From the IMG/VR virus record IMGVR_UViG_3300008050_000301, positions 1 through 24,594 of that record: a DNA stretch of 24,594 nucleotides. The stretch is one strand, 5' to 3'. The notes beneath the pieces are model-generated. The model was not told the origin of the DNA. It did not search any database and saw nothing but the letters and a program-made list of their open reading frames with translations. Shown here piece by piece: positions 867-24,594 of the stretch; position 1 is the stretch's first letter, and every line of letters starts with the position of its first letter. This stretch comes from a virus. A program made the position numbers and the translations under genes.

Positions 867-1310
867 ATGAAAAAATCACAGCTAAAAGCAGTTATTAAAC
901 CTATTGTAAAAGAATGTATTAATGAGGTTCTTTTAGAACAGGGCTTGCTTTCCAATATTATTGCAGAGGTTATCAAAGGGGTTCAGCCTATCCACGCGCG
1001 CGCTCCCATGCCTACTCCAAATAAACAATTAATATTCCAAAAGCAACAAGTTGAAGAGCAACGCCAAGAGTTGGAATATCAAAAACAACAGCAATTAAAA
1101 GAACAGAAAAGAAAGCTTTTAGATGCAGCTGGATTTGGAACTGATATTTTTGCTGGCTCTGAGCCAATTACCGGAGGTATCACAACTGAAAGCAAAGACC
1201 CATCCGGAGGTCAAGCTGGTGCCTTATCTGGTGTAGCCCCAAGTGACCCTGGTGTAGATATATCTGGCATTATGGCTGTTGGTGGAAGAAATTGGAGCAA
1301 AATGATATAG
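867..1310 (+). CDS. Small Gln-rich head-region protein with capsid-targeting-like N-terminus
   Basis: 147 aa, ATG with AGAGG 5-10 bases upstream; it follows the previous stop by 8 bases, so the two are co-transcribed. The N-terminus (MKKSQLKAVIKPIVKE) is a basic amphipathic helix followed by LLE and IAE triplets, which fit the (L/I)xE cleavage rule of T4 gp21-type proteases. The middle (about residues 53-84) is a Gln/Lys/Glu-rich coiled-coil-like helix. The C-terminal third is Gly/Ser-rich and ends in a short hydrophobic stretch (GVDISGIMAVGG) and RNWSKMI. Its place between the partial upstream gene and bS21/scaffold suggests an internal prohead protein comparable in position to T4 gp67/gp68. 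No specific family is recognised and the function is inferred from context only. Confidence 0.7.
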   Translation: MKKSQLKAVIKPIVKECINEVLLEQGLLSNIIAEVIKGVQPIHARAPMPTPNKQLIFQKQQVEEQRQELEYQKQQQLKEQKRKLLDAAGFGTDIFAGSEPITGGITTESKDPSGGQAGALSGVAPSDPGVDISGIMAVGGRNWSKMI

Positions 1311-1318
1311 GAGTCTCA

Positions 1319-1552
1319 ATGTCAAGCAAAAAACCAATTAGAGCAGAAGTACGAGCTAAATATTCTGATGAACCGATTGAAAGAATGCTTAAGCGTTTCA
1401 ACAAAAAGGTGAAAAAAGAAAGAATTATTGAAATATTTTTAGAACAAAAAAGATACGAAAAGCCGTCAGATCGCAAACGAAAGCTCCAAAAGAGAAGAAA
1501 AAAGGTTTTAGAAAAGCTTCATCGCGCTCAACAGAAGAATGCCAGTAGATAG
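1319..1552 (+). CDS. rpsU: Phage-encoded 30S ribosomal protein bS21
   Basis: 77 aa from the ATG at 1319, which has ATAGGAG five bases upstream; an in-frame TTG at 1292 lies inside the preceding gene and is less likely. The family pattern is clear: EP at residues 18-19, LKRF at 24-27, YEKP at 46-49, then (S/T)DRKRK and a long basic helix to the end. Escherichia coli bS21 (71 aa) has EP, LRRF, YEKP and ERKRAK in the same order and spacing, so this copy is full length. bS21 sits on the 30S platform near the 3' end of 16S rRNA and the mRNA Shine-Dalgarno duplex, so a phage copy could replace the host protein and change which mRNAs initiate. Virus-encoded bS21 is known from other phage genomes. 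Its place inside the head-assembly operon implies late expression. Confidence 0.88.
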   Translation: MSSKKPIRAEVRAKYSDEPIERMLKRFNKKVKKERIIEIFLEQKRYEKPSDRKRKLQKRRKKVLEKLHRAQQKNASR

Positions 1553-2768: not shown

Positions 2769-4574
2769 ATGTCTATTTTACAAAAACTTACAGAGGGTGT
2801 CGTTAGTCGCGACATGCGTAAGGAAGGTGCTGCTCTTCTCAATAAGTGGGAAAAGACAGGTCTTCTTGAAGGTCTCAATACTGATAGTGCCAAAAATGGT
2901 ATGGCTCGTCTACTTGAGAACCAAGCGAAGCAGCTTCTAAAAGAGGCGGCTTCAACAATGGGTGGTGGAGATGTTGAAGGTTTCGCAGCCGTCGCATTCC
3001 CCATCGTCCGTCGTGTATTCGGCGGATTGATCGCTAACGATCTCGTCAGCGTTCAACCTATGAGCCTACCTAGTGGTCTCATTTTCTTCCTAGACTTTAC
3101 TTTCGGTGGGACAGATGTTCATGCTAACCGTCTAGGTTTCGATAACGGCTCTTCACTTTATGGTGGTGGTGTTGTTGGTGCGCAACTTACTGGTGGTGTC
3201 AATCTCGCTGGAGAAGATGGTACCAAAGCCGGTCAGTTTTATAATTTAACTAATGGGTATTCTTCACCAACGGGCACCGTCGCCGCGAACGACAGCGACA
3301 TTGCTGTTGTACTTACTGGTACTTTAGGTGATGGTGGCACGATCGATTTAACCACAGGATTTTCGGGTAATCCATTGGGTACATTGACGGAAACAGAAGT
3401 TAACAAGATCTTGCGATTTGATCCAGATTTGACTTCTGGTTCTGCTTTCGGAATTGTTGAGCTTGATCTGGGCCCCAACGGCGCGGATACCCAATTCAAT
3501 TACGATGATTTAGCAGCAATGTCTTTCGACTTCCCCGGCGACCCGCTGGGGGATGTTGTTCTTATTCGCCGTTTATCTCAATTAAGTAAAAGTGCTGATG
3601 GTGACACCACTAGTCAAACTACACTTAGATCAGTCTTTGTTGCGCAAACTGGAACTATGGCTATCGTCGGGACAACAATGGTTCAGGCAACTGCAGAATA
3701 TAGTTTCCCCATCAATGACAATTTCGAGAATGCCGGTGGGCAGATTGGCGCTGTTGTGGGTGATGAGCACTGGGGTCTTGAGAATAATGCAGAAATTCCC
3801 GAGATCAACCTCTCTGTTGATTCAGTGTCCGTCACGGCGATGACCAAGAAGCTCAAAGCTAAGTGGACTCCGGAACTTGGTCAGGATCTCAATGCTTATC
3901 ACAACTTGGACGCCGAGGTGGAGCTTACTTCACTTCTCTCCGAGCAGATTGCTCTTGAGATTGACCGTGAGATTCTTGAGGATCTCGTAAAGGGTGCTAC
4001 TGCTGGAACTTATTACTGGTCACGCAGTCCCGGTCTATTCGTAAACAGGAAGACCGGTGTTGAAGTTGGAGCTGGCGCTAACGCTCCCGACTTCACCGGT
4101 ACCGTTTCTGAGTGGTATGAGACCCTTGGTGAAACTATTAATGATGTATCGGCACAGATCCACAGAAAGACACTTCGTGGCGGCGCCAACTTCATCGTTA
4201 CTTCGCCAGAGGTTGCTAATATTCTTGAGTTCACCGCTGGTTTCCGCGCAAACGTCACTGTTGACGACGCAAAGGGAACTGCTGGAACTCAGCAGGTTGG
4301 CACACTTAGCAAGCGTTACGATGTGCTTGTTGATCCTTACTTCCCACGCAACCTCGTGTTGATTGGACGCAAGGGCAGCAGCTTCCTAGAGAGCGGTTAT
4401 GTATACGCTCCTTATGTTCCACTACAGGTCACGCCTACCATCTTTGGTACGGAAGACTTCGTGCCACGTAAGGGTGTCATGACTCGTTATGCGAAGAAGA
4501 TGGTTAGACCTGATATGTATGGTCTTGTCATCGTTCGTGGACTTCTAGGCGAGACTGGCGCCTCGGGCGACTAA
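2769..4574 (+). CDS. gp23: Major capsid protein precursor (gp23-like)
   Basis: 601 aa with AAGGAG nine bases before the ATG. Residues 1-59 form a helical propeptide ending in LLKE, followed by AASTMGGG; this fits cleavage after (L/I)xE, as in T4 gp23, between E59 and A60. Landmarks shared with T4 gp23 (521 aa) include VRR near the domain start, SVQPMSLPSG, a central helix with LKAKWTPELGQDLNAYHNLD and EIDREILEDL, then GGANFIVTSPEVANIL, the KRYDVLVDPYF strand, YVYAPYVPLQ, and a TRYAKKMVRP C-terminus. The extra length lies in a Gly/Thr-rich stretch (about residues 115-290), likely a surface insertion. C-ending codons are enriched relative to neighbouring genes, as expected for the most highly expressed phage gene. 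A strong terminator follows. Confidence 0.95.
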   Translation: MSILQKLTEGVVSRDMRKEGAALLNKWEKTGLLEGLNTDSAKNGMARLLENQAKQLLKEAASTMGGGDVEGFAAVAFPIVRRVFGGLIANDLVSVQPMSLPSGLIFFLDFTFGGTDVHANRLGFDNGSSLYGGGVVGAQLTGGVNLAGEDGTKAGQFYNLTNGYSSPTGTVAANDSDIAVVLTGTLGDGGTIDLTTGFSGNPLGTLTETEVNKILRFDPDLTSGSAFGIVELDLGPNGADTQFNYDDLAAMSFDFPGDPLGDVVLIRRLSQLSKSADGDTTSQTTLRSVFVAQTGTMAIVGTTMVQATAEYSFPINDNFENAGGQIGAVVGDEHWGLENNAEIPEINLSVDSVSVTAMTKKLKAKWTPELGQDLNAYHNLDAEVELTSLLSEQIALEIDREILEDLVKGATAGTYYWSRSPGLFVNRKTGVEVGAGANAPDFTGTVSEWYETLGETINDVSAQIHRKTLRGGANFIVTSPEVANILEFTAGFRANVTVDDAKGTAGTQQVGTLSKRYDVLVDPYFPRNLVLIGRKGSSFLESGYVYAPYVPLQVTPTIFGTEDFVPRKGVMTRYAKKMVRPDMYGLVIVRGLLGETGASGD

Positions 4575-7596: not shown

Positions 7597-10500
7597 ATGT
7601 CAGTTGATAAATTTAAATTCATTTCACCAGGAATCTTTGTAAACGAGATTGATAATACTGGTAGAACGGCGACACCGGAGGATGTAGGACCCGCATTGAT
7701 TGGTAGATCTGAAAAAGGTCCCATCTTACAGCCTATTCGTGTTAATTCATATTTTGAATTTGTAAAAGTTTTTGGTCAGCCAATTCCAGGTGGTAAAGGT
7801 GGCGATGTATTTCGTGATGGCAATTACACCTCTCCTACATATGCGCCATACGCTGCGCAAGCATGGTTTCGAAACAATTCTCCTATAACCTTCGTAAGAC
7901 TCGGAGGTAGAGCTAGGTCTAATGCAACAGGCATTGGCTTAGCTGGCTGGAAGACAGAAGATACCGAGCCCAGTGATGCAATTGCTACTAATGGTGGCGC
8001 TTATGGTCTTTTTGTTTGTGATGCGCCTACTAGATCTGACTATCTTTCAGCTAGTATCACGGTAGATAAAGACACTGTGCCTGCTGGGCAAACAATTGTT
8101 TTTGGTGATGGCAGGGGAACAACCAGAACGATTATTTCTGGTACAGTCACCAATAGCACTACATTCGATGCTAGCAGTGGAGTTAAAAATACAATAGCTT
8201 CAGAAATTAAAGATGCAATTAATGCTGGCACTAGTGAGTTTTTTGCAGCCACGGTTGACACAAATGTTGTCACCTTAGAAGTCAATACCACAGTTTCACC
8301 TCTGAATGATGTTCCAGCACTTTACCAGGGTCCTTCTATTAAAGAAAGTGGCGGCGATGCAATTGCGGCAACGGCAGAAATCGCCGGGGTCACGCCCGGA
8401 ACATTGGTTGCTGGTCAATCATTTACATTAACAAATGCCGCTGGAACAACAACAACATACACTATCAATGGAGGCGGCGCATTCGGCACTCAACCCGGAG
8501 GCGCAGCAGGGACAACGTTCGATCTTTTTATAGGCGGCGCTAGCTCTATAGCTGATATTTGTGAAGCTATTAAAAAATCAATCAATGCCACCACCTCCGC
8601 AGATTATACCGCTACTGATGACGGCGCCACTGTAACTGTTACACAAACCACAGCCGGGGACGCAGGAAATAAAACAAATGCAGATACCGGTACTGGTCTT
8701 GGTGTTGATAGCGATCCGTTCACAGGCGGTCTAGACGGTCCTAGTGCTCTTGTTTTATCAATAGAACCACTCGTTGATATAGCCAATCGTGAGACGGGCA
8801 TATGTTCTGCTTCTTACGCTAGCGTAACCGGCACTCTTGCAGCAACTTGGTATATTGATAAGGAAGCAGTCATTGGTCTTTCTGGAAGTAAGTCTATTGA
8901 TGGAGAAAACGGCGTTGGAACTAGTATATACTTCGATTCAGTAGGCACAAAAGAATATAAAGTACAAATTTCCTCTAGTCTTAAAGGAATTGAAGTTGAT
9001 TCAGCTTTTAATTTTAACCGTACTAGCGATAAATACCTTAGAAAAGTATTCAATACCAACCCAATTTTAACTAATAACGCAGCTGTGGAGGAATCCAGTA
9101 ATTCATTTAGCCGTTATTGGCTTGGTGAATCATATGAAGGTTCTGTAAACGATACTATAACAGGCACCGGCGCAGGCGGAAGTGTCGCTGTGATATTGCC
9201 TTTGCTTTTTGGCACAATTCAAGGTGGTGATTTCACTAGTGATGGTAATCGTTTGGGCTTCCAAGACGCTCAGACTGGATATTTCTTTTCTCAAGATTTA
9301 GGAATTGGCACTAGCGCCACAGGCAGCTACAATCCTGCAAATATGCAAAAATTATTCAGATTAGTAGCACGAAACAGTGGTGATTGGGTATCACGAAACG
9401 TAAAAGTATCAATTGATAATTTACGAGCTTCGCCTAATGAAGCTGCTAATCCTTATGGAACATTTAGCGTAATACTACGCGCTTTGGATGACACTGACAA
9501 TAGAGTTAAAGCAATAGAGCGACATGATAATTGCAGTCTTAATCCTAATTCTAAAAACTTTATTTTACGTAAAATTGGAGATAGACGCTATGAATGGGAT
9601 CCAGATGATAGAAGATATCGCTCTTTGGGGTCCTATACTAATAATTCAGCTTATATTTGGGTAGACATGCCTGAAGCTGTATTAAAAGGTGACACAGATG
9701 CTACATTCCTGCCCTTTGGTGTAGATGGACCTCTACGTTTTGTTTCTTTTGTAGATGATGAGGATCCGGAACAAGCACAAACGCTAGTTAGTGGTAACTT
9801 GGACGATTATGGTAGCACTGTTACCACCTTTATTTCTGGAGCAACTGATGGTGACATTAAGTTTGAATTCCCAGAATTGAGACTGCGTGGGTCAGGTTCT
9901 GAAGGTGACCCTGTTGATCCTTTAAATTCTTTTTATGGTGTCGACACAACCTTTAATTCTACTCGCTTAGACCCCAGTGTGCGAGATTATTTAAGAATTA
10001 AGCCCGCTGGCGTTAGTGATTTTAACACTAGTGATATTACTGAGCATTCCTTTAGATTTACCTTGGATGACATGTGTATGGCTGGTGAGGCATCGGCTAA
10101 GGTCTTTTGTTATAAATCAGGATCTAGACAAGCAAACGCGGATGACGATACACTCTCTCGACGCGGAGGCTTAACTTATATGCGTGGCACCGGTTCTTAC
10201 AAAGAGGTGTTGAGCGCTGGCGTGGATCGCTTTACAACGGTTTTCTTTGGAGGAACAGACGGTTTAAACATTAAAGAGTCTGAGCCATTACGTTTGGTTA
10301 ATAATGTTGGTTTTGATGATAGTGCTCTTACTAATTATATGTTTAATTCAGTACAAGGCGCAATTGATTCAATTCGCGATCCCGAAGTTGTAGAATACAA
10401 TCTTGCTTCAATACCCGGTGTTACAAACAACACACTTAATTTGTCCTTAATTGACATGTGTGAAAGTCGCGGCGATGCTTTGGCAGTTGTTGATTTAGCA

Positions 10501-11250
10501 GGAGGTTATACTCCACAATATCAAAGCACAGATAGCGAAGCAGAGCGGCGCGGATCAGTCACCACAACTGTAAATACAATAACCAATGAATTAATAACTA
10601 ATTCAAGTTATGGTGCTGCATATTATCCTTGGGTGCAGGTTAGAGACCTTAACAATGGACAAATTGTTTGGGTTCCGCCTTCTGTAGTAGCCATCGGAGC
10701 GATGTCTTACAGCCAAAAGGCTAGCGAACTTTGGTTTGCTCCAGCTGGGTTTACTAGAGGTGGCTTGTCACTAGGTAAAGCTGGCTTGCCGGTTGTTGGA
10801 GTGCGTGACAGGCTGACTTCGCGCGACCGTGACAAGCTTTATGAAAATAAAATTAATCCAATAGCTCAGTTCCCTGCAGAAGGAATTGTAATATTTGGAC
10901 AAAAAACATTGCAATCATCGGCATCTGCATTAGATAGAATTAATGTTAGACGATTGATGATTTTCTTGAAACGTCAAATTTCAAGATATGCTGCCACAAT
11001 TTTGTTTGACCAAAACGTTCAGACAACGTGGAATCGATTTAAGGGTCAAGTGGAGCCATTCCTGAGAGGAGTTCAGGCTGGATTGGGCATCACCCAGTTT
11101 AAGTTAGTTTTAGATGACACTACAACTACTCCTGATTTGGTAGATAGAAACATTGTTTATGCAAAAATCTATCTTAAGCCGGCGCGTTCAATTGAATATA
11201 TTGCTATCGATTTTATTTTGACTGATAGTGGCGCAGCGTTTGAAGATTAA
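7597..11250 (+). CDS. gp18: Tail sheath protein (gp18-like), very long
   Basis: 1217 aa with AAGGAG nine bases before the ATG. The N-terminus is the standard sheath start: SPGIFVNEID, GPALIGRSEKGP, then FGQPIPGG and AAQAWFRNNSPITFVRLGG. The C-terminal quarter is the conserved sheath core: GAAYYPWVQVRDLN, WVPPSVVAIGAMS, FAPAGFTRGGL, an LDRINVRRLMIFLKRQISRY helix and a closing beta strand (YAKIYLKPARSIEYIAIDFI). T4 gp18 is 659 aa, so this protein is nearly twice the usual size. Extra material includes two adjacent copies of a beta domain (about residues 148-245 and 255-375) and further insertions up to about residue 900. Sheath insertions normally face outward, so these probably decorate the tail surface. 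Confidence 0.93.
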   Translation: MSVDKFKFISPGIFVNEIDNTGRTATPEDVGPALIGRSEKGPILQPIRVNSYFEFVKVFGQPIPGGKGGDVFRDGNYTSPTYAPYAAQAWFRNNSPITFVRLGGRARSNATGIGLAGWKTEDTEPSDAIATNGGAYGLFVCDAPTRSDYLSASITVDKDTVPAGQTIVFGDGRGTTRTIISGTVTNSTTFDASSGVKNTIASEIKDAINAGTSEFFAATVDTNVVTLEVNTTVSPLNDVPALYQGPSIKESGGDAIAATAEIAGVTPGTLVAGQSFTLTNAAGTTTTYTINGGGAFGTQPGGAAGTTFDLFIGGASSIADICEAIKKSINATTSADYTATDDGATVTVTQTTAGDAGNKTNADTGTGLGVDSDPFTGGLDGPSALVLSIEPLVDIANRETGICSASYASVTGTLAATWYIDKEAVIGLSGSKSIDGENGVGTSIYFDSVGTKEYKVQISSSLKGIEVDSAFNFNRTSDKYLRKVFNTNPILTNNAAVEESSNSFSRYWLGESYEGSVNDTITGTGAGGSVAVILPLLFGTIQGGDFTSDGNRLGFQDAQTGYFFSQDLGIGTSATGSYNPANMQKLFRLVARNSGDWVSRNVKVSIDNLRASPNEAANPYGTFSVILRALDDTDNRVKAIERHDNCSLNPNSKNFILRKIGDRRYEWDPDDRRYRSLGSYTNNSAYIWVDMPEAVLKGDTDATFLPFGVDGPLRFVSFVDDEDPEQAQTLVSGNLDDYGSTVTTFISGATDGDIKFEFPELRLRGSGSEGDPVDPLNSFYGVDTTFNSTRLDPSVRDYLRIKPAGVSDFNTSDITEHSFRFTLDDMCMAGEASAKVFCYKSGSRQANADDDTLSRRGGLTYMRGTGSYKEVLSAGVDRFTTVFFGGTDGLNIKESEPLRLVNNVGFDDSALTNYMFNSVQGAIDSIRDPEVVEYNLASIPGVTNNTLNLSLIDMCESRGDALAVVDLAGGYTPQYQSTDSEAERRGSVTTTVNTITNELITNSSYGAAYYPWVQVRDLNNGQIVWVPPSVVAIGAMSYSQKASELWFAPAGFTRGGLSLGKAGLPVVGVRDRLTSRDRDKLYENKINPIAQFPAEGIVIFGQKTLQSSASALDRINVRRLMIFLKRQISRYAATILFDQNVQTTWNRFKGQVEPFLRGVQAGLGITQFKLVLDDTTTTPDLVDRNIVYAKIYLKPARSIEYIAIDFILTDSGAAFED

Positions 11251-11292: not shown

Positions 11293-11844
11293 ATGACTGA
11301 GAGATTTTGGAGCGACCCCACTGTGGAGCCAAAACGAAGTTTTCGTTGGTATTTTACTTTAACAGGTCCGGAGTACAAGTTAGAAACTTATGCTATCAAA
11401 TCGGTAAAAAAACCTTCTTTTACGGTTAGTGAAGTGCCACATCAATATGTTGCTCATACTTTTTATTATCCCGGTAGAATAACTTGGAACACGGTAGACG
11501 TTACTTTTATCGATCCAGTTAGACCAGATCAATCAGCTATTATTAGTAATATGGTGGTCGCTGCGGGCTATACTCCTCCTCGTGATGAAATACAGTCTAG
11601 AACATCATTTAGCAAGGACAAATTCGTTAAGAGTGTGGGACAACCAGTAATTAGTCAAATTAATGCTGATGGAAAACAGATAGAAAGATGGACTTTAAAC
11701 AATGCATTCTTCACAAACGTTGATTATGGTCAATTGGATTACGGCACAGAAGAATTAGTTATTAATTCTGTGACTATACGTTATGACTTTGCCACATTGG
11801 AAACACTTCCTCCAGCTGAGCCCACATCCACATTAACGCCATAA
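11293..11844 (+). CDS. gp19: Tail tube protein (gp19-like), first copy
   Basis: 183 aa with AAGGGAGA upstream. Typical T4-like tube features: FWSDPTVEPKRSFRWYFTL at the start, a KSVKKPSFTVSE strand, YYPGRITWNTVDVTFID, and a C-terminal INADGKQIERWTLNNAFFTN / YGTEELVINSVTIRYDFA. Length is close to T4 gp19 (163 aa). Stacked hexamers of this protein form the inner tail tube through which DNA passes. It directly follows the sheath gene, which is the standard order. The C-terminus has a short Pro/Thr extension absent from the neighbouring copy. Confidence 0.92.
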   Translation: MTERFWSDPTVEPKRSFRWYFTLTGPEYKLETYAIKSVKKPSFTVSEVPHQYVAHTFYYPGRITWNTVDVTFIDPVRPDQSAIISNMVVAAGYTPPRDEIQSRTSFSKDKFVKSVGQPVISQINADGKQIERWTLNNAFFTNVDYGQLDYGTEELVINSVTIRYDFATLETLPPAEPTSTLTP

Positions 11845-11856
11845 GAGGAACTTACA

Positions 11857-12381
11857 ATGCCCTTTTGGAGTGACCCGTCTGTAGAGCCTAAATTATCTTT
11901 TCGATGGTATGCTTCATTTGGGTTTGGCACAACAAATGTAATAAGTAGTTATACTTTACGTTCGTTTCAGAAGCCTTCTTTTGAAATAGCTGCATCTGAA
12001 TACCTTTGGCTTAATGATGTTGCCTATAGACCGGGTATATTAACATGGAACCCTATAGAAATTACCATAACTGATGTAGAAGATATTTTTGAAAATAATA
12101 CTAGAAAACTATATAGTATATTACAGCGCGCCGGCTATCAAACAGCTGATCCGGTTAACAAGCCGAAGTCTGCGATCGAAAAAAAAGCAGCTTCTGAGGC
12201 ACTTGGTAACGATTTAAGATTAATTCAGATTAATAGTTCCGGCGGCGCTATTGAGGAATGGGTGCTGAAAAATCCATTTATCACAACAGTAAATTTTGGA
12301 CAAGCTAATTATGGCGCAGAAGAAATCATGACTATATCTTTAGGATTAAGATATGATTGGGCTGAGCATAATATAAAGTAA
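11857..12381 (+). CDS. Second tail-tube-like protein, paralogue of the first
   Basis: 174 aa with AAGAGGA eight bases before the ATG, 12 bases after the first tube gene. It aligns along its full length with the preceding protein: FWSDPSVEPKLSFRWYASF, QKPSFEIAASEY, YRPGILTWNPIEITITDVED, INSSGGAIEEWVLKNPFITT, and YGAEEIMTISLGLRYDWA. The two clearly arose by duplication but have diverged widely. Possible roles are a distinct ring at the baseplate or neck end of the tube, a gp54/gp48-like initiator, or a minor tube subunit. The sequence alone does not decide between these. Confidence 0.85.
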   Translation: MPFWSDPSVEPKLSFRWYASFGFGTTNVISSYTLRSFQKPSFEIAASEYLWLNDVAYRPGILTWNPIEITITDVEDIFENNTRKLYSILQRAGYQTADPVNKPKSAIEKKAASEALGNDLRLIQINSSGGAIEEWVLKNPFITTVNFGQANYGAEEIMTISLGLRYDWAEHNIK

Positions 12382-17325: not shown

Positions 17326-17676
17326 ATGACAATTTCACGCTACGATAATAGAATGATATTAACAAACGTTTCTAATGATTATAGATTTTCTAAGATTTTA
17401 AAAGCTAGAGGATTAGACCGGATTAAACAATATCTTACTCCTGAATTGACATACCCTTCAGGTGAAGACTTAGCTGAAATCCAACAGGTTACGCGCGTAT
17501 GGACAGTAGGAACTAAATATTTTAATTTATCATATGAATTTTATGGCGATCCACAATATTGGTGGGTTATTGCTTGGTTCAATTTGCAACCACTAGAAGC
17601 AAATTTTAGACCCGGCGACGTAGTTATAATACCTACCCCATTAGAAACCGTTTTAAGCGGTTTCGGGTTAATGTAG
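17326..17676 (+). CDS. Small LysM-like baseplate protein (gp53/gpX-like)
   Basis: 116 aa with AAAGGA upstream. The C-terminal half reads VGTKYFNLSYEFYGDPQYWW, then VIAWFNLQPLEANFRPGDVV and IIPTPLE. This is the LysM-like pattern of phage baseplate proteins: a 'GT..xxLayxfYGdpxxwwvIa..N' helix-turn-helix followed by 'PGDVIxIP'. T4 gp53 contains a comparable run (YGNPQLYWVLL), and P2 gpX is a similar short LysM-type tail protein. Such proteins bind neighbouring baseplate subunits or cell-wall sugar. The N-terminus (ISRYDNRMILTN) is a short beta segment. The hub gene starts 9 bases after its stop, so the two are probably made together. Confidence 0.7.
   Translation: MTISRYDNRMILTNVSNDYRFSKILKARGLDRIKQYLTPELTYPSGEDLAEIQQVTRVWTVGTKYFNLSYEFYGDPQYWWVIAWFNLQPLEANFRPGDVVIIPTPLETVLSGFGLM
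17644..17664. repeat. Perfect 7-bp inverted repeat at the end of the LysM-like gene
   Basis: GAAACCG (17644-17650) and CGGTTTC (17658-17664) flank a 7-base loop. It lies inside the last codons of the gene, 22 bases before the hub ATG. No T run follows, so it is not a standard terminator. It might shape translation coupling or mRNA processing, or be chance. Confidence 0.45.
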
Positions 17677-17685
17677 GAGAAAAAG

Positions 17686-20600
17686 ATGCCCACAGCTGCA
17701 CCACCAACCCCTACTCCACCGGCGCCTGGTACTACACCTACGGGACTACCCCCCGGCGCGACTCCCTCCATTCCAATAAGCAATATTGCATTAATGCCTT
17801 CATTCAATGATCAATGTTTTTTAATTGAAAAAGCAATGGCCATATACAATGTTAAGAAAAACGAGTCTTTGAGTAAAATTAGCCCAACTAGTCCTGTTCG
17901 TCAAATAAAAACTAATGCTCCTTTGGCTTCGTTTAAAACAAATTTGAAGTATATTAATCATATTACTTCAATGGTTGACGTTAAGAATTTTTTCGAAATA
18001 AGTTCAGAAAAAGCAGCGCAGCTAGCACATTATACAACTATATCAGTTGTACATAGAAACCCAACAGCTAATTTTGAACGAAAAAAGCCTATTTTTACTT
18101 CATCCGGTCATAGAGATTTTAATGCTGCAAATTTAGATGTCTTTCAAAGTTCCGGTGCGAGATCGGGAGCGGGAATTCAAAACATTAATGTTACATATGA
18201 GGGTATAGACTCAGCTACTAAAAAAGTAGTACGGGTTGCTACGACATATCTTTTTCAAGATATAAGAACTATGTTAAATTCTAAATATATTGAGCTATTA
18301 AAAGTGCTCATGAGTGAGGAAATAGAGGGCGTTAAAGCGTCACGAACTATTGATTTTGAAATAGGCTGGTCGACGCGCAAACATAGCTTGAAAAATGAAG
18401 CGTCTTCGTTAACTGAACAATTAGGCTTGAAATATCTAAAATTAAAACTTCGCACTAATATAGTTAAATACACATTTGATCTTAAACAGGACGGCTCTAT
18501 AATAGTTAATGCGGAGTATGTTGGTCACATTGTAGATGTATTTGGAGGACCATCTTCAAATGTATTATCTATGGCTAAAGATGCATATGCAGAAGTCAAA
18601 AACAACCTGGAACAAATACAAAATAGAGCCACACAGACAGCTGCCCGAGCGGCTCAGAGTGCAAATCAAATGAGAACAAGCGGATTAGCGCACCTGGCAT
18701 TTACACGTATTTTGGATTACGGTAGTTCCACCGCATTTCGACCGCGCGCCGGCGGGCCCGCGCCGCAATACGATGAGGGCATAAAGACCTTGGCTGGAGC
18801 CACCGGGGTGGGTAATAGCAATCCAGCCAACAACGGGGTTCTCGACAGCTGGTTGAATGCAATACAAACCGAGGTAAATGATTTTGCCCCCAGCATCCAG
18901 ACCGCTGGGTCGGGGAACTTCACTGCCGCGGAGACGAGCGCTTTAGATGTTGAGATGAAAACCGTCATGAATCGTTTTAAAAATGAGCTAAAAGAGGCTT
19001 GGACAAATCCTCATGGTGTATCGGCGACAAGAGTACATAGAGTCCAAGCTGTTCTAGCAAAATTTAAAAGTATGGCAGCTCACACACATCGGGCTGGGCA
19101 AGCTGCAATTGCCACTACCGCACAACAGCAGGCATATAAGAATGCCATGGAAGAGCAATTAACTCGTGCTCAAATGGCAAGATTTTTAGCATTGCAAGAA
19201 GTAGCCAAAACATTATTAGATAAAAGTTTAATTAATTATGCTTATATAAAACGAAAACCTACTATTGAAGAATTTGTAAAAGCTGCAGCGCAGGGTCCTC
19301 AAGGTACCCCAACAGTTAAAACCTTAATGCAGGGTCTTGGCGCGGCAAGCTTTTTAGCAGACCGGGGGGATCCTAACAATCCGATATCAGAAGAAGAACT
19401 AGATACAGAAAGTATTCAAGTTATTCCTTTTGTTTTTTTGGGGAAATTTATAGAAAACGTTTTAAATTTACCAGCTAGCTCTATTAAAGCATCCACTGCA
19501 GGTTCTTCGACCTCTGCGGCTATAAAAACGGTATACCAATCTATGATAGAAAATTCTGGTCAAGAATTTACTGTAGATTTTGGATTAGTTTCTTATAAAT
19601 CGCCTTATACCGGTACCGAAATTAATAACCTGCCTTTGTATTATTTACCTTTATCGTTAAAAAAAATAAATGATTTTTTTGCTAGAGAAGTAGTTGCCAA
19701 AGAAAAGTCATTTTTTGCGTTTGATGATCTTGTTTTATCTATTTTAAGGAAATTTCTTACAAATGTTTTTGGCATATGTATGCAAGAGGCGCACACTACT
19801 GGGTTTGTGGCGCCTAAAATACAGGCGTTGGGAGGACAACGTGGGAAAATGCTGCATTATTTTATATATGGATTTAAAAATGTAAGAAACGATATTAAAG
19901 ATGGAAATATAACTTTTGGCAGTTATAATCAAAATTTTAGAAATCATATATATCATTTTTACTTAGGAGGTCAAATTAAAGGCGCCGTAAAACATGTTAA
20001 AGTAATCGACGTTGCCGACACAAACACCAAAATGGCTGTTTTCTGGCGTAATCAAGCTTCTGCGCGGGTTGGTATGACAGAGCCGAATGCCACCGATATC
20101 GGCGCTTTACCTCCTGTGGTCTTTCAAGCTGAAGTGGAAACAATGGGCTTTCCTCTTTTTAACATAGGGCAATTAATATATGTTGATTTAAGACCATATA
20201 TTACTTCTGAGTATGGGCGCCAATTTAAAGCTAATGGGTATTATGGCATAACAAAAGTTACTCATAGTTTTACTCCTGAAAATTTTTCTTCTACAGTTAG
20301 TGCCATTATACAGTATTCTTTAGCAGATTATGATGCAAACAAAGGCGCAACATCTGCCTCAACCGGCACACCTGTCACTCCACCAGCCACAACAATACCT
20401 GCACCAACCCGTGCGCAATTGGCTGCAATTGCTGCTGAGCAAGCAAAAGCAAAAGCAAAAGAAAAATGGATTAAAAGTTTTATAGACACTTATGACGTGA
20501 CCACCCAAGCTTTTGGTACAGCCACTCTAAAACCATTCCCAGGTGTCGATCCAGCCCAAACGTTAAAGCAAGCCAAAATAGCAGCTGCGCATCAGCACTT

Positions 20601-20745
20601 TGGGGCTTGGATCAGGAGCCCGAGTGGATCGCGATCGGCGTGGGCGAATCCCCACTGCCAATGGATGAACGACGCCCCCGGTGCTAAGCTACACTACGCG
20701 GTGTTAAAACGCAATGGTGAAATTCCTGTAGGTAGTGGATGTTGA
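17686..20745 (+). CDS. Large baseplate hub-like protein
   Basis: 1019 aa with GTAGGAG upstream. A Pro/Thr-rich N-terminus (residues 1-35) is followed by a domain with INVTYEGIDSATKKVVRVAT, TYLFQDIRTMLN and RTIDFEIGWST (about 165-230), which resembles hub-type (gp27/gpD-like) beta domains in marine phage baseplates. Residues about 345-425 are a GC-rich, Gly/Asn/Ala-rich insertion, followed by a helical region to about 545. A second beta domain near residues 808-880 contains AEVETMGFPLFNIGQLIYVD, LRPYITSEYG, ANGYYGITKVTHSFTPENFS, which is the typical closing strand pattern of hub proteins. A Pro/Thr linker (about 887-910) leads to an Ala/Lys helix and a Trp/Cys/His-containing C-terminal tail of unknown role. 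No lysozyme motif was seen. Confidence 0.7.
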   Translation: MPTAAPPTPTPPAPGTTPTGLPPGATPSIPISNIALMPSFNDQCFLIEKAMAIYNVKKNESLSKISPTSPVRQIKTNAPLASFKTNLKYINHITSMVDVKNFFEISSEKAAQLAHYTTISVVHRNPTANFERKKPIFTSSGHRDFNAANLDVFQSSGARSGAGIQNINVTYEGIDSATKKVVRVATTYLFQDIRTMLNSKYIELLKVLMSEEIEGVKASRTIDFEIGWSTRKHSLKNEASSLTEQLGLKYLKLKLRTNIVKYTFDLKQDGSIIVNAEYVGHIVDVFGGPSSNVLSMAKDAYAEVKNNLEQIQNRATQTAARAAQSANQMRTSGLAHLAFTRILDYGSSTAFRPRAGGPAPQYDEGIKTLAGATGVGNSNPANNGVLDSWLNAIQTEVNDFAPSIQTAGSGNFTAAETSALDVEMKTVMNRFKNELKEAWTNPHGVSATRVHRVQAVLAKFKSMAAHTHRAGQAAIATTAQQQAYKNAMEEQLTRAQMARFLALQEVAKTLLDKSLINYAYIKRKPTIEEFVKAAAQGPQGTPTVKTLMQGLGAASFLADRGDPNNPISEEELDTESIQVIPFVFLGKFIENVLNLPASSIKASTAGSSTSAAIKTVYQSMIENSGQEFTVDFGLVSYKSPYTGTEINNLPLYYLPLSLKKINDFFAREVVAKEKSFFAFDDLVLSILRKFLTNVFGICMQEAHTTGFVAPKIQALGGQRGKMLHYFIYGFKNVRNDIKDGNITFGSYNQNFRNHIYHFYLGGQIKGAVKHVKVIDVADTNTKMAVFWRNQASARVGMTEPNATDIGALPPVVFQAEVETMGFPLFNIGQLIYVDLRPYITSEYGRQFKANGYYGITKVTHSFTPENFSSTVSAIIQYSLADYDANKGATSASTGTPVTPPATTIPAPTRAQLAAIAAEQAKAKAKEKWIKSFIDTYDVTTQAFGTATLKPFPGVDPAQTLKQAKIAAAHQHFGAWIRSPSGSRSAWANPHCQWMNDAPGAKLHYAVLKRNGEIPVGSGC

Positions 20746-20803: not shown

Positions 20804-22213
20804 ATGCCCCAATATTTTCCAGATTTTATAGCAAAAACTACTCACCCTATCAAATCTTATAGTCTATATGAAAACAGACGTTGGTACAAAGAAAAAACTT
20901 CTCAAATTTTCAATAATTTTAATAATAATTATATTGATTTGTGGTATGGCACTCCTTATTACGGTAAAGTTAACGAGTCAGGAGTGCTAGTGATACCAAA
21001 TAAAGATTATTTGAAATATTCTGCAAAACACAACTTAGTCTCGTTTGATTTTGTAATTCAAGCCTTTGACGAATTTATCTATTTTTTACAAAGAGCGACT
21101 ACTCAGGGAAAGCTTTCCATGAGAAACGTTTTAGGAAATTTTAAAGTTAAAAGAAGTTTTGAAGATACAGAAAATAAATATCTTAATTTTGCGTGGAGTG
21201 TTGTAAAATCATTTAACGATTATATTGTCTCCAACAATAAAATGGTTTTAAATATGGAATCATACGTATGCGAGTTTTTAAAATATTTAGAACTTAATCC
21301 TTTGGGATTGTTTTCTTATTATTCTATTTTTGCGAGTTATAAAACCTCAGTGAGAGCTAGTGGGCTTGCAATTGAATTTTTAGCGGCAAATCATGATAGT
21401 GATGTTATAAAAAATCGATTTTTCAAAAATGCAGAATTTTATAAATACGTTCAAACTGCGGCTAATTTTGGTTTTAGAATTAATAAAAATGCGCCTTGGA
21501 TGGTTATCGCAGATTTAAATTCCAAGCCGATGCAAACTGGACATACAATTAAACGTATAAACACTACGCAAACTGTTGATGGCTACCTACCACAGAATAT
21601 GATTCCCAATACTCAAGCTTTGTTTGCGAGTCATTACAATCGATGCATTGCGGCCGCAGTGGTATATTTGCAAGAAATTATGATATATGGATATAAAGAA
21701 TATCAATCGAATATGTTATACTTAATAGATCATAATAACGTTAAATATGAGTCTTTGGCACGTTATCAAAAGTTCAATAGCGGCGGTGGAGTTACTAAAC
21801 GATGGGCGCGCCAGCTGACAATTAAATCTTATAAAACGCCTAGTAGTAAGTATCCAGCATCTTCGGTAGTTGAAATTAACGACTTACGTAAGCTATATGG
21901 AGAAAAATTTTGGTTAACGATGATGGAGAAAGTTCTTAAAAAGGAATATTCTGTGCCAAATGATAAAGCTTATAGAAGTTTTAAAAAAAAGTTTGAGTGG
22001 AATTTGAATAACGCTCCTTTACTGTTTGACGTATACACCCTTTTAGAATCTTTTTATAGCTCTACAAAGATATTTGGTAAATCTTCACGGTCCCCATTGT
22101 GGTCCGAGTCAAAAAAGTCCTTGAATCCTCAAAAAAATAATGTTATGGTACCAGCAGGAAAAGAAAAACCAACGATTAGTAAAATCGTTACTGAGTTCCA
22201 TACAGGATATTAA
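20804..22213 (+). CDS. Unknown 469-aa protein coupled to the polymerase-like gene
   Basis: 469 aa, ATG without an evident Shine-Dalgarno. The protein is aromatic- and Lys/Asn-rich (many Y, F, W) and predicted helical, with landmarks NRRWYKEKTSQIF, LVSFDFVIQAFDEFIYFLQR, VQTAANFGFRINKNAPWMVI followed by ADLNSKPM, and SSVVEINDLRKLYGEKFWLT. The APW(M)xIADLNSKPM stretch looks like the core of a conserved family, but I cannot assign a function. Its stop overlaps the start of the family-A polymerase-like gene (TAATG), so the two are translated together and may act together. Alternative readings are a virion structural protein placed after the hub gene, or a partner (priming, processivity or exonuclease-like) of the polymerase. 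I saw no DEDD exonuclease motif set, but did not test this exhaustively. Confidence 0.75.
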   Translation: MPQYFPDFIAKTTHPIKSYSLYENRRWYKEKTSQIFNNFNNNYIDLWYGTPYYGKVNESGVLVIPNKDYLKYSAKHNLVSFDFVIQAFDEFIYFLQRATTQGKLSMRNVLGNFKVKRSFEDTENKYLNFAWSVVKSFNDYIVSNNKMVLNMESYVCEFLKYLELNPLGLFSYYSIFASYKTSVRASGLAIEFLAANHDSDVIKNRFFKNAEFYKYVQTAANFGFRINKNAPWMVIADLNSKPMQTGHTIKRINTTQTVDGYLPQNMIPNTQALFASHYNRCIAAAVVYLQEIMIYGYKEYQSNMLYLIDHNNVKYESLARYQKFNSGGGVTKRWARQLTIKSYKTPSSKYPASSVVEINDLRKLYGEKFWLTMMEKVLKKEYSVPNDKAYRSFKKKFEWNLNNAPLLFDVYTLLESFYSSTKIFGKSSRSPLWSESKKSLNPQKNNVMVPAGKEKPTISKIVTEFHTGY

Positions 22214-23397
22214 TGATATTTCAGACTTTTGATGATAAGCAAGAGTGTTTTTTAATTTACAAAGAAGAAGGGTTCCATAAGAACTTAACTCCATCATGTA
22301 CTCAAACATGGTCATATGCCACATATATGAAAGACCGCGATGACATTGAATACGCTCAATTGTATGCTCTGGGCGCCGATTTGGATGACTTATGCCCAGC
22401 TTCTATAAAAGGCAAATGGCAGCGAATTCAAAAAAGAATAAAAGCTGTAATTAAGTCGGTTTATGAGGTAGGTCTAGATTTAGATAGTCACTGCATATAC
22501 GATATGATGCCTCGCTGCATTCTTAAAGACTGGGCAAACACAAAAACTGAAATATGTAAAGAAGTATTTATAAATTATAAAAAACCAGCCCATTATAATC
22601 AATTACTAAAGATTAATAAAGTTATTGCCGATATTAAACAGAGAAGATTGAACATTGATCCTTCTCAAATATCTAGACTTACACTTCAAGATAGAAATAC
22701 TTATAAACTTATTACACAAAATAAGCCTTTTATTGATTATGACATGGCTAAAACCGTAACAGGTCGCTTAAGCACCAAGAAAGGGTCTTTTCCAGTCATG
22801 ACCTTGGCAAAGAAATACAGAGGAGTACTGACTCCTACTAATCATTGGTTATATGAGCTAGATTTTAATGCATGTGAGCTAAGAGCTGCGCTAGCGTTGC
22901 TGGGAAATCAACAGCCACCAGAAGATCTTCATGAGTGGAACCTTTCCCATGTGTTTACTAGGGCAAAAGATCGTGATAATGCTAAAAAAAGAGTATTCTC
23001 TTGGCTTTATAACCCTCATAGCAAGGATGATAAGATTAATAAGATTTACGACCGAAATAAACTCAAAACTTTGTATTTTAAGGATAATAAAGTTATAACT
23101 CCTTTTGGTCGCGAAATAGAATGTGATGATGACCATGCTGTTAATTATTTAGTGCAGTCCACTGCGGCAGATATGGTCTTTGAGCAAATGTATAAGGTTT
23201 GGAAACTTCTAGAAGGTAAAAAAAGCTTTATTAAGTTTTGCAACCATGATTCTCTAATGATTGACTTACATATGGACGATCAGTTTGAGATTAATAAGAT
23301 TAAAAAACTATTTAGTGCGACACGATTTGGAGATTTTCGTGTTAATTGCCTAGGCGGCAAAAATTGGGCAGAAATGAAGCGCTTAATGATTAAATAA
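22213..23397 (+). CDS. Compact family-A DNA polymerase-like protein
   Basis: 394 aa. All polymerase motifs are readable: TGRLS at residues 183-187 (as TGRLSS in Pol I); motif A as DFNACELR at 217-224, keeping catalytic D217 and steric-gate E222; motif B (O-helix) as R254-x3-K258-x3-F262-x3-Y266, the exact spacing of R754/K758/F762/Y766 in E. coli Pol I; ITPFGREIE then LVQSTAADMVFEQ, matching the QGTAAD helix; motif C as HDS at 345-347, where Pol I and T7 DNA polymerase have HDE. Only about 175 residues precede the polymerase core and no exonuclease motifs are visible, so this is a much reduced enzyme (Pol I is 928 aa). It could fill gaps, repair packaged DNA or act with the upstream 469-aa partner. 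Location in a late structural operon is odd for a replicative enzyme. Confidence 0.85.
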   Translation: MIFQTFDDKQECFLIYKEEGFHKNLTPSCTQTWSYATYMKDRDDIEYAQLYALGADLDDLCPASIKGKWQRIQKRIKAVIKSVYEVGLDLDSHCIYDMMPRCILKDWANTKTEICKEVFINYKKPAHYNQLLKINKVIADIKQRRLNIDPSQISRLTLQDRNTYKLITQNKPFIDYDMAKTVTGRLSTKKGSFPVMTLAKKYRGVLTPTNHWLYELDFNACELRAALALLGNQQPPEDLHEWNLSHVFTRAKDRDNAKKRVFSWLYNPHSKDDKINKIYDRNKLKTLYFKDNKVITPFGREIECDDDHAVNYLVQSTAADMVFEQMYKVWKLLEGKKSFIKFCNHDSLMIDLHMDDQFEINKIKKLFSATRFGDFRVNCLGGKNWAEMKRLMIK

Positions 23398-23421: not shown

Positions 23422-23718
23422 ATGAAACTTACTAAAGCATATTTAAAGCAATTGATAAGAGAAGAAAGAGAGAAAATGACGTCGCACGAAAAAACCACCC
23501 CAGCTGCGACACAAGAAGAAAATCCCAATTTGCAGGATTTAAAACAGAAATTGCTTGATTTGACAAAAAATCTAGCTGGCATCCAAATGAACGAAATAGA
23601 TATGATTAATTTGTTTGTTGAATTAATTGATTTAGCAAAACGCGAAAATATTAATGTACAAGAATTACGTAGAAGGCTGGGGTTTGTTAAACAAGCGGCA
23701 CAGAAGATTGCGAAATGA
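23422..23718 (+). CDS. Small helical protein with capsid-targeting-like N-terminus
   Basis: 98 aa with a long purine-rich ribosome site (GAGAGAGGA). The N-terminus MKLTKAYLKQLIREEREK is a basic amphipathic helix followed by IRE (12-14), which fits an (L/I)xE prohead protease site and resembles the start of the 147-aa protein at 867. Residues 20-36 are Thr/Ala/Glu-rich and probably disordered. The remainder (LQDLKQKLLDLTKNLAGIQM to the end) is two or three helices, ending basic (RRRLGFVKQAAQKIAK). If the N-terminal reading is right, the protein is packaged inside the prohead and trimmed. Without it, the protein is simply an unknown helical protein. It overlaps the next gene by 4 bases (ATGA). 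Confidence 0.7.
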   Translation: MKLTKAYLKQLIREEREKMTSHEKTTPAATQEENPNLQDLKQKLLDLTKNLAGIQMNEIDMINLFVELIDLAKRENINVQELRRRLGFVKQAAQKIAK

Positions 23719-24419
23719 GTGAGATGAAACTAATAATGGAAGGTTGGCGAAATTATAATGCTGATCAAGAAGAAGCAAAAGAGGCTCAGCAATTAGTTGA
23801 AGAATTCTGGCGAGGAGATTATTGTTCAGGCGAGCTTATTTTAGAAAATGAAATTAAACTTTTAGAAGAGGGCGTAAGCCAATTTTTTAGAGACGCCTAC
23901 ACCTCAGTAAAATCTAAAATAGATCAATTTAAAAACTGGAGTGAGCAAAAACTCATGAGTTTTGTTGAGTCAGGGTTAGAAAAACTTAATTCTTTTTTAA
24001 CAAAAATGCGAAATATTGCAAAGGAAACAAAAAATCAAGTATTGTTAAAATTATTCCCTAAATATGGCACAAGAGAAAAACAAGATATTGTAAAAGTCTT
24101 AATGATGCCAAAGTATCTGAGGATAGGAGCCGCCATAATAACGACTTTTTTGCAAAAAGCAGCAAAATTTGGAATTAGTGCTTTATTGGATACACTCACC
24201 GCCGGCACCGGCACTGCAGCAAAAATAAGTACTTTTATCAAAGACAATATAGAAAAAATAAAGCTTTTTGTCGATGGTGTGATGAACGCGCTAGATCCAA
24301 ATGGGATTTTAGACATGATTGAACAATTTGATATTATGAAGGATGCTAAGGAATTAATCGATCAATTCAAAGCAGATCTCCAAGGACGTCGAAATCCACT
24401 CACATCAACAGAGGCATAA
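23715..24419 (+). CDS. Unknown 234-aa helical protein, possible internal head protein
   Basis: 234 aa from the ATGA overlap at 23715; an in-frame ATG at 23724 would give a start MKLIMEGWRNYNADQEE. I favour this second form biologically because MK(L/I)IMEGWR-type starts look like T4 capsid-targeting peptides with an IME cleavage site, but the upstream ATG is coupled to the preceding gene. The body is helical: an acidic N-terminal third with several LLE/ILE triplets, a Lys-rich middle, and a hydrophobic stretch (about residues 136-170, RIGAAIITTFLQKAAKFGIS and ALLDTLTAGTGTAA) that may insert in or lie on a membrane. The C-terminal helices are amphipathic. An ejected internal virion protein would fit, but this is inference. 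Confidence 0.7.
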   Translation: MSEMKLIMEGWRNYNADQEEAKEAQQLVEEFWRGDYCSGELILENEIKLLEEGVSQFFRDAYTSVKSKIDQFKNWSEQKLMSFVESGLEKLNSFLTKMRNIAKETKNQVLLKLFPKYGTREKQDIVKVLMMPKYLRIGAAIITTFLQKAAKFGISALLDTLTAGTGTAAKISTFIKDNIEKIKLFVDGVMNALDPNGILDMIEQFDIMKDAKELIDQFKADLQGRRNPLTSTEA

Positions 24420-24594
24420 ATGCACACCGTAATAGGATTAGGTCAAGCAGGCTGCAATATTGCTGACCAATTAAAACAATACCCACAATATAAAATAATA
24501 AAAATTGATACCGGTCTAAGAAAGACCAAGACTTCTTTTGGTCTGAAGCACCAGGCATCACCAGAACTGTATGAAGAAAAACTGCCGCGAGGTA
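24420..24594 (+). CDS. Tubulin/FtsZ-like protein, N-terminal part only
   Basis: 58 codons are visible before the window ends. The ATG lies one base after the preceding stop, and GAGG is five bases upstream. The protein begins with a hydrophobic strand and nucleotide-binding loop, HTVIGLGQAGCNIADQLKQY, followed by a second strand with Asp (YKIIKIDTG). FtsZ and TubZ-type proteins start the same way: a strand, GxGxxGxN(x)V/I, a helix, then a strand ending in D/N-T-D. The pattern could also be a different Rossmann-type nucleotide-binding protein, because only the first loop is visible; the tubulin signature (GGGTGS-like T4 loop) would lie beyond the window. Phage tubulins such as PhuZ build filaments that position DNA or the phage nucleus. 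Confidence 0.5.
   Translation, partial: MHTVIGLGQAGCNIADQLKQYPQYKIIKIDTGLRKTKTSFGLKHQASPELYEEKLPRG

What the first reader, a model, noticed from the sequence alone, without database searches (positions are those of the whole stretch)
22213..23397. Minimal family-A DNA polymerase in a structural gene cluster
Motif A (DFNACELR), the complete O-helix spacing R-K-F-Y, the QSTAAD helix and motif C (HDS) are all present in only 394 aa. There is no visible exonuclease, and Ser replaces the usual Glu of HDE. T4-like phages replicate with a family-B enzyme, so a late-expressed family-A enzyme would be an additional activity: gap filling, translesion synthesis, repair of packaged DNA, or even a virion-carried polymerase.
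Basis: partly seen in the sequence, partly recalled or inferred. Interest (0 to 1): 0.78.

Follow-up and report, generated by a model that had tools for sequence, protein, structure and literature searches.

The report
Extra exonuclease-less PolA in far-T4 phages
The gene is a real, compact DNA polymerase of the Pol I family without a proofreading part, which a widespread group of distant T4-like phages keeps next to their recombination and repair genes in addition to their main replication polymerase; the family was reported in 2024 as divPolA1, and its job is still untested.

Summary
ORF 22213-23397 (394 aa) is a family-A DNA polymerase: Pfam DNA_pol_A E=1.2e-10, above the curated cut-off. 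A confident AlphaFold2 model (pLDDT 92.9) matches Pol I Klenow/KlenTaq. Every listed motif is present, and the R, D, E, R, K, F, Y, Q, H, D signature is invariant in 77 sequences; motif C is HDS in 75 and HDA in 2. There is no exonuclease domain.

The gene closes the tail cluster and opens a replication/recombination cluster: tail genes, PolA, a weakly tubulin/FtsZ-like gene, gp32 SSB, RecA, a Pol I-type 5' nuclease, DnaB-type (gp41) helicase. Anchoring on SSB instead, 54 of 54 loci had PolA upstream. Relatives of this branch do not use family B: 12 of 14 large contigs encode DnaE, none of the 10 tested has PolB. A sister branch pairs the same gene with PolB, or in immuto with a full PolA.

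This matches divPolA1 (Yutin et al. 2024, PMC11348598), so it is a new member of a known kind. Best reading: an auxiliary, proofreading-free Pol I equivalent working in trans with the phage 5' nuclease and SSB in Okazaki maturation and gap repair. The biochemistry is inferred.

The parts
22213..23397 (+). small family-A DNA polymerase (divPolA1 type), 394 aa
22759..22773 (+). TGRLS motif (R185, by position the Klenow R668 site)
   Evidence: invariant R in 77 sequences
22861..22884 (+). motif A DFNACELR: catalytic D217; E222 at the steric-gate position
22972..23010 (+). O-helix R254-K258-F262-Y266
   Evidence: helix 254-266 in the model
23155..23172 (+). QSTAAD motif (Q315)
23245..23253 (+). 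motif C H345-D346-S347 (S in place of the usual E), in the turn between strands 339-343 and 347-352
20804..22213 (+). 469-aa protein of unknown function directly upstream; its stop overlaps the PolA start by one base
   Evidence: present upstream in 63 of 63 loci with room
17686..20745 (+). 1019-aa protein of the tail/baseplate region (no Pfam or PHROG match)
17326..17676 (+). 116-aa homologue of the roughly 102-116-aa proteins that precede the last tail genes in immuto and Mel-JY01
7597..11250 (+). tail sheath
   Evidence: phmmer to annotated sheaths of Mel-JY01 and immuto
11293..12381 (+). two tail-tube genes
2769..4574 (+). major capsid protein gp23, far-T4 type
23422..23718 (+). 98-aa gene between PolA and the tubulin-like gene, present in some relatives only
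23715..24419 (+). 234-aa gene, present in some relatives only
24420..24594 (+). start (cut by the window end) of a 282-aa tubulin/FtsZ-like protein, next to SSB in relatives

Best explanation
The gene encodes an active, template-directed DNA polymerase reduced to the Pol I polymerase core (palm, short fingers, helical thumb region), with no 3'-5' exonuclease. It is an auxiliary enzyme; bulk replication is done by a separate polymerase (DnaE in this branch). It most likely works as a Pol I in trans: the phage's separate Pol I-type 5' nuclease removes RNA primers and flaps, the phage gp32-type SSB holds the single strand, and this polymerase fills the gap on lagging-strand fragments and at recombination or repair intermediates made by the phage RecA. 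Shown here: polymerase family, fold, conserved catalytic residues, absence of exonuclease, purifying selection, conserved neighbourhood, presence of a second polymerase in relatives. Inferred: catalytic activity, partnership with the nuclease and SSB, and the role in fragment maturation and repair.
For: Fold and motifs. Catalytic set invariant in 77 sequences; median dN/dS 0.061. Synteny where enough sequence is held: gp32 SSB 57/58, RecA 40/41, 5' nuclease 25/25, gp41 helicase 20/21 (domains: gp32 2e-15, RecA 1.8e-36, 5_3_exonuc_N 4.6e-29, DnaB_C 6.9e-23). Anchored on SSB, 54/54 loci have the PolA upstream. Relatives carry a separate replicase: DnaE in 12 of the 14 IMG/VR contigs of this branch that were tested, PolB in 9 of 14 sister-branch contigs, PolB in Mel-JY01, full PolA with exonuclease in immuto. 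The position is kept while the replicase changes family. A DnaG-type primase-like ORF of about 310-330 aa lies elsewhere in 7 of 8 records tested (above cut-off in 2), so this enzyme is probably not the primase. E222 and F262 are kept, as in dNTP-selective Pol I enzymes (residue roles from general knowledge).
Against: No biochemical or genetic data. The usual Glu of motif C is Ser, which may lower activity. The 5' nuclease is near but not adjacent, and gene order alone does not show partnership. Recombination-dependent synthesis or lesion bypass would leave the same genomic picture. The window ends before SSB, so the neighbourhood is read from relatives; one of them (L002) encodes an identical PolA and continues through SSB.
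Confidence: 0.55

Rival explanations
1. A specialised repair or lesion-bypass / D-loop-extending polymerase that works with the phage RecA and SSB in recombination-dependent replication and not in Okazaki maturation.
For: Neighbours are SSB, RecA and helicase; no proofreading; shortened fingers (gaps against KlenTaq). The sister-branch model also matches Pol theta and Pol nu.
Against: Neighbourhood shared with a Pol I-type 5' nuclease in all 25 loci long enough to show it. Foldseek hits to Pol theta/nu are no better than to Klenow.
Confidence: 0.25
2. The small PolA is itself a fork polymerase (for example the lagging-strand enzyme), and the other polymerase has the lesser role. Yutin et al. 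note that the context of the 'regular' polymerases is less clearly replicative than that of divPolA1.
For: It opens the conserved replication cluster; Yutin et al. 2024 infer a role in replication.
Against: No proofreading, reduced core, and a complete DnaE, PolB or PolA coexists.
Confidence: 0.1
3. A catalytically weak or inert protein kept for a structural or regulatory role (clamp-like, DNA-binding, or virion-associated).
For: Coupled to a tail-region gene (overlap or a few bases in many loci). The sister branch has drifted further: motif A E to H, R of the O-helix lost, motif C YDS/YDA.
Against: All catalytic residues invariant in this branch; both catalytic Asp, K, F, Y and Q kept even in the sister branch; strong purifying selection.
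Confidence: 0.06
4. A polymerase packaged in the virion and delivered with the DNA.
For: Only its place directly after tail-region genes.
Against: No direct evidence; neighbours on the other side are intracellular replication proteins.
Confidence: 0.03

Closest known systems
divPolA1 (Yutin et al. 2024, Virol J 21:200, PMC11348598)
   Same: Divergent family-A polymerase encoded besides a regular DNAP of family A, B or C in 155-190-kb phages related to Flavobacterium phage immuto; conserved replication genes downstream; palm residues conserved; no working exonuclease.
   Different: The window copy is shorter and lacks the exonuclease domain altogether, whereas divPolA1 was described with an inactivated one. 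It keeps motif A Glu, O-helix Arg and motif C His that immuto, Mel-JY01 and LR756508 have lost. Their other representatives (MK892584, LR796625) are not held here, so whether this exact sub-branch was among their 14 phages is unknown.
Bacterial DNA polymerase I (Klenow fragment, KlenTaq)
   Same: Palm fold, motifs A, B and C, TGRLS and Q motif; the partner 5' nuclease family is encoded separately nearby.
   Different: 394 aa only, no exonuclease domain, shorter fingers, HDS in place of HDE, 5' nuclease on another gene.
T4 gp43 (family-B replicase)
   Same: Virion genes of the window are T4-related (gp23 Pfam E=2.6e-72).
   Different: Unrelated polymerase family; no PolB found in large contigs of this branch.
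divPolA2 (Yutin et al. 2024)
   Same: Also an additional, exonuclease-less family-A enzyme.
   Different: Described in barbaviruses with variable gene neighbourhood and no recognisable thumb.

Membership tests
DNA polymerase family A (Pfam PF00476) | profile score above the curated cut-off | tested here: met
   41.3 bits against 34.3, E=1.2e-10
DNA polymerase family A (Pfam PF00476) | palm/fingers fold with motif A and motif C carboxylates | tested here: met
   model pLDDT 92.9; Klenow-type best matches; D217 and D346 invariant
DNA polymerase family A (Pfam PF00476) | HDE at motif C (usual, not treated here as an absolute requirement) | tested here: not met
   HDS in 75 of 77, HDA in 2
DNA polymerase family A (Pfam PF00476) | polymerase activity | not testable with these tools
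   needs purified protein
divPolA1 | homology to the immuto divPolA1 | tested here: met
   window-branch profile finds immuto gp001 at E=1.6e-8; branch profiles align with E=3.5e-16 over 271 columns
divPolA1 | no functional 3'-5' exonuclease | tested here: met
   no exonuclease domain hit; best-hit query TM about 0.60 for this model, against about 0.8 for the sister-branch model that keeps an exonuclease-like N-terminal fold
divPolA1 | encoded together with a regular DNAP of family A, B or C | tested here: met
   DnaE in relatives, including some 64-69% identical to the window protein; not visible in the 24.6-kb window itself
divPolA1 | conserved replication genes downstream | tested here: met
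   read from relatives
divPolA1 | truncated thumb | tested here: inconclusive
   helices at 63-169 in the model, not superposed domain by domain
virion-carried polymerase | protein present in the virion | not testable with these tools
   needs mass spectrometry

The most novel reading that the evidence does not exclude
Far-T4 phages carry a Pol I that has been split into separate genes and kept at one fixed locus while the replicase was exchanged between families A, B and C, so the auxiliary polymerase, not the replicase, is the conserved core of their replication system. In the sister branch the steric-gate Glu has become His, so those enzymes might also use ribonucleotides.
Probability: 0.25. 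Interest if true: 0.65.

Novelty: new member of a known kind. Interest (0 to 1): 0.4.

Why it matters
A polymerase that stays in place while the main replicase is swapped shows which step of phage replication is hard to outsource. The family is far larger than the 14 phages in which it was reported: two IMG/VR scans confirmed 170 and at least 565 relatives. A small, exonuclease-less, strand-filling enzyme with a separate 5' nuclease also allows a direct test of whether phages rebuild Pol I in trans, and the two active-site subtypes give a natural comparison of nucleotide selection.

Tried and rejected
Family-B replicase as the default: rejected for this branch. Small PolA as the only DNA polymerase of the phage: considered after searches found no PolB and no other PolA, rejected when DnaE appeared. 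Small PolA as primase: unlikely, since a DnaG-type primase-like ORF lies elsewhere in 7 of 8 records (weak scores). Rhodothermus phage RM378 as a carrier: the profile finds nothing there. It has PolB, and its 'similar to DNA polymerase I' gene p012 matches the 5' nuclease; its 'DNA polymerase' gene p024 was not examined. Cellular origin: the only hit in genome contigs is a truncated phage segment in a WOR-3 MAG. Tubulin-like neighbour: a profile search of PDB sequences finds no tubulin or FtsZ. T4-type late promoter TATAAATA: one + strand match at 21440, inside a gene, so uninformative. Promoter and terminator scans were at chance level.

Full report
What is there. The ORF 22213-23397 (+) encodes 394 aa. 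It matches Pfam DNA_pol_A at E=1.2e-10, above the curated cut-off, and a PHROG DNA polymerase family at 6.9e-15. A single-sequence search of PDB sequences is not significant (best E 0.82), but a profile of 37 relatives finds KlenTaq at 9.6e-10 and Klenow at 5.8e-9. The AlphaFold2 model is confident (pLDDT 92.9, pTM 0.90), and Foldseek returns Pol I Klenow-type fragments first (E about 3e-12, query TM about 0.60). I did not measure the distance between D217 and D346; D217 lies in strand 212-218 and D346 in the turn between strands 339-343 and 347-352, the usual palm arrangement.

Residues. In 77 full-length sequences (the window plus 76 loci) R185, D217, E222, R254, K258, F262, Y266, Q315, H345 and D346 never change; residue 347 is Ser in 75 and Ala in 2. 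Median dN/dS over 136 closely related pairs is 0.061. The protein is conserved as an enzyme. The spacing between the O-helix and the Q motif, and between the TGRLS motif and the O-helix, is shorter than in KlenTaq. There is no exonuclease domain.

Relatives. A scan of IMG/VR with the profile gave 170 confirmed relatives (80 kept). A profile search also found more distant homologues in Flavobacterium phage immuto (E=1.6e-8), Microcystis phage Mel-JY01 (1.2e-5) and the 484-kb LR756508 (9.6e-16). The two branches are homologous by profile comparison (E=3.5e-16 over 271 columns). The sister branch has motif A D[YF]DAYH-R (His at the steric-gate position), mostly YDS at motif C, and no Arg at the start of the O-helix, but keeps both catalytic Asp and the K, F, Y and Q residues. 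Its model aligns with the whole Klenow fragment (query TM about 0.8), and its N-terminal fold looks like a degenerate exonuclease domain; that reading of the N-terminus is by eye from the sequence and the secondary structure. The window branch has lost it.

Neighbourhood. In branch 1 the order is tail genes, a 465-470-aa protein, PolA, a tubulin/FtsZ-like 282-aa protein, gp32-type SSB, RecA, Pol I-type 5' nuclease, gp41-type helicase, then ribonucleotide reductase in many (domains). Where enough sequence is held: upstream gene 63/63, SSB 57/58, RecA 40/41, 5' nuclease 25/25, helicase 20/21. These loci were found through PolA itself, so I also anchored on SSB: all 54 loci with at least 1.8 kb upstream have the PolA there; some of these contigs overlap the first set. 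The sister branch shows the same order without the tubulin-like gene. The window ends just after PolA; L002, which encodes an identical PolA, continues into SSB.

Replicase. Of the 14 IMG/VR contigs of branch 1 tested for DNA_pol3_alpha, 12 match; the 10 tested for PolB have none, and those 10 show no second PolA. Two contigs of 185-186 kb, one with an end repeat of about 50 bases, encode a 1141-1142-aa DnaE with PHP, polymerase and finger domains. In the sister branch PolB is present in 9 of 14 contigs; Mel-JY01 and LR756508 have PolB, and LR756508 also has a DNA_pol3_alpha match; immuto has a 777-aa PolA with exonuclease. Absence in fragments is not proof of absence.

Prior work. Yutin et al. 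2024 (PMC11348598) described divPolA1 in 14 phages related to immuto, encoded besides a regular DNAP of family A, B or C, with conserved replication genes downstream, conserved palm residues and an inactivated exonuclease. The window protein meets the features I could test. What I add: the size of the family, two active-site subtypes, loss of the exonuclease domain in this branch, the DnaE pairing of the window's branch, and constant linkage to a Pol I-type 5' nuclease.

Mechanism. The most economical reading is a Pol I split over separate genes: a polymerase core that fills gaps, with a 5' nuclease and SSB in trans, serving fragment maturation and repair while another polymerase replicates the genome. 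Activity and partnership are inferred. Expression time is open: the start codon overlaps the upstream stop by one base here, as in 14 of the loci, which suggests co-expression with the tail region, but the genes downstream are replication proteins.

Noticed in passing
window 24420-24594; full copy L002:3470-4318: A 282-aa protein with a tubulin/FtsZ-like N-terminus (VIGLGQAGCNIAD) sits between PolA and SSB in 73 of the 76 branch-1 loci examined. Pfam Tubulin only at E=0.038 and no PDB tubulin match by profile, so a remote or false resemblance; function unknown.
   Followed up: partly
L136:8704-14063: A candidate division WOR-3 MAG chromosome (CP070664.1) holds a piece of this phage cluster (upstream gene, PolA, tubulin-like, SSB, shortened RecA) between bacterial genes; an assembly chimera is likely.
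   Followed up: partly
window 1292-1552: 86-aa ORF in the head-gene region similar to the Mel-JY01 gene annotated as ribosomal protein S21 (RpsU).
   Followed up: no
window 11293-12381: Two adjacent tail-tube-like genes; in Mel-JY01 both match the one annotated tail-tube gene.
   Followed up: no
L129:4676-5419 (contig G008): 247-aa protein with a sub-threshold match to the S-adenosylmethionine lyase family; the related 186-kb contig G009 also carries DnaK- and GroEL-like genes.
   Followed up: no
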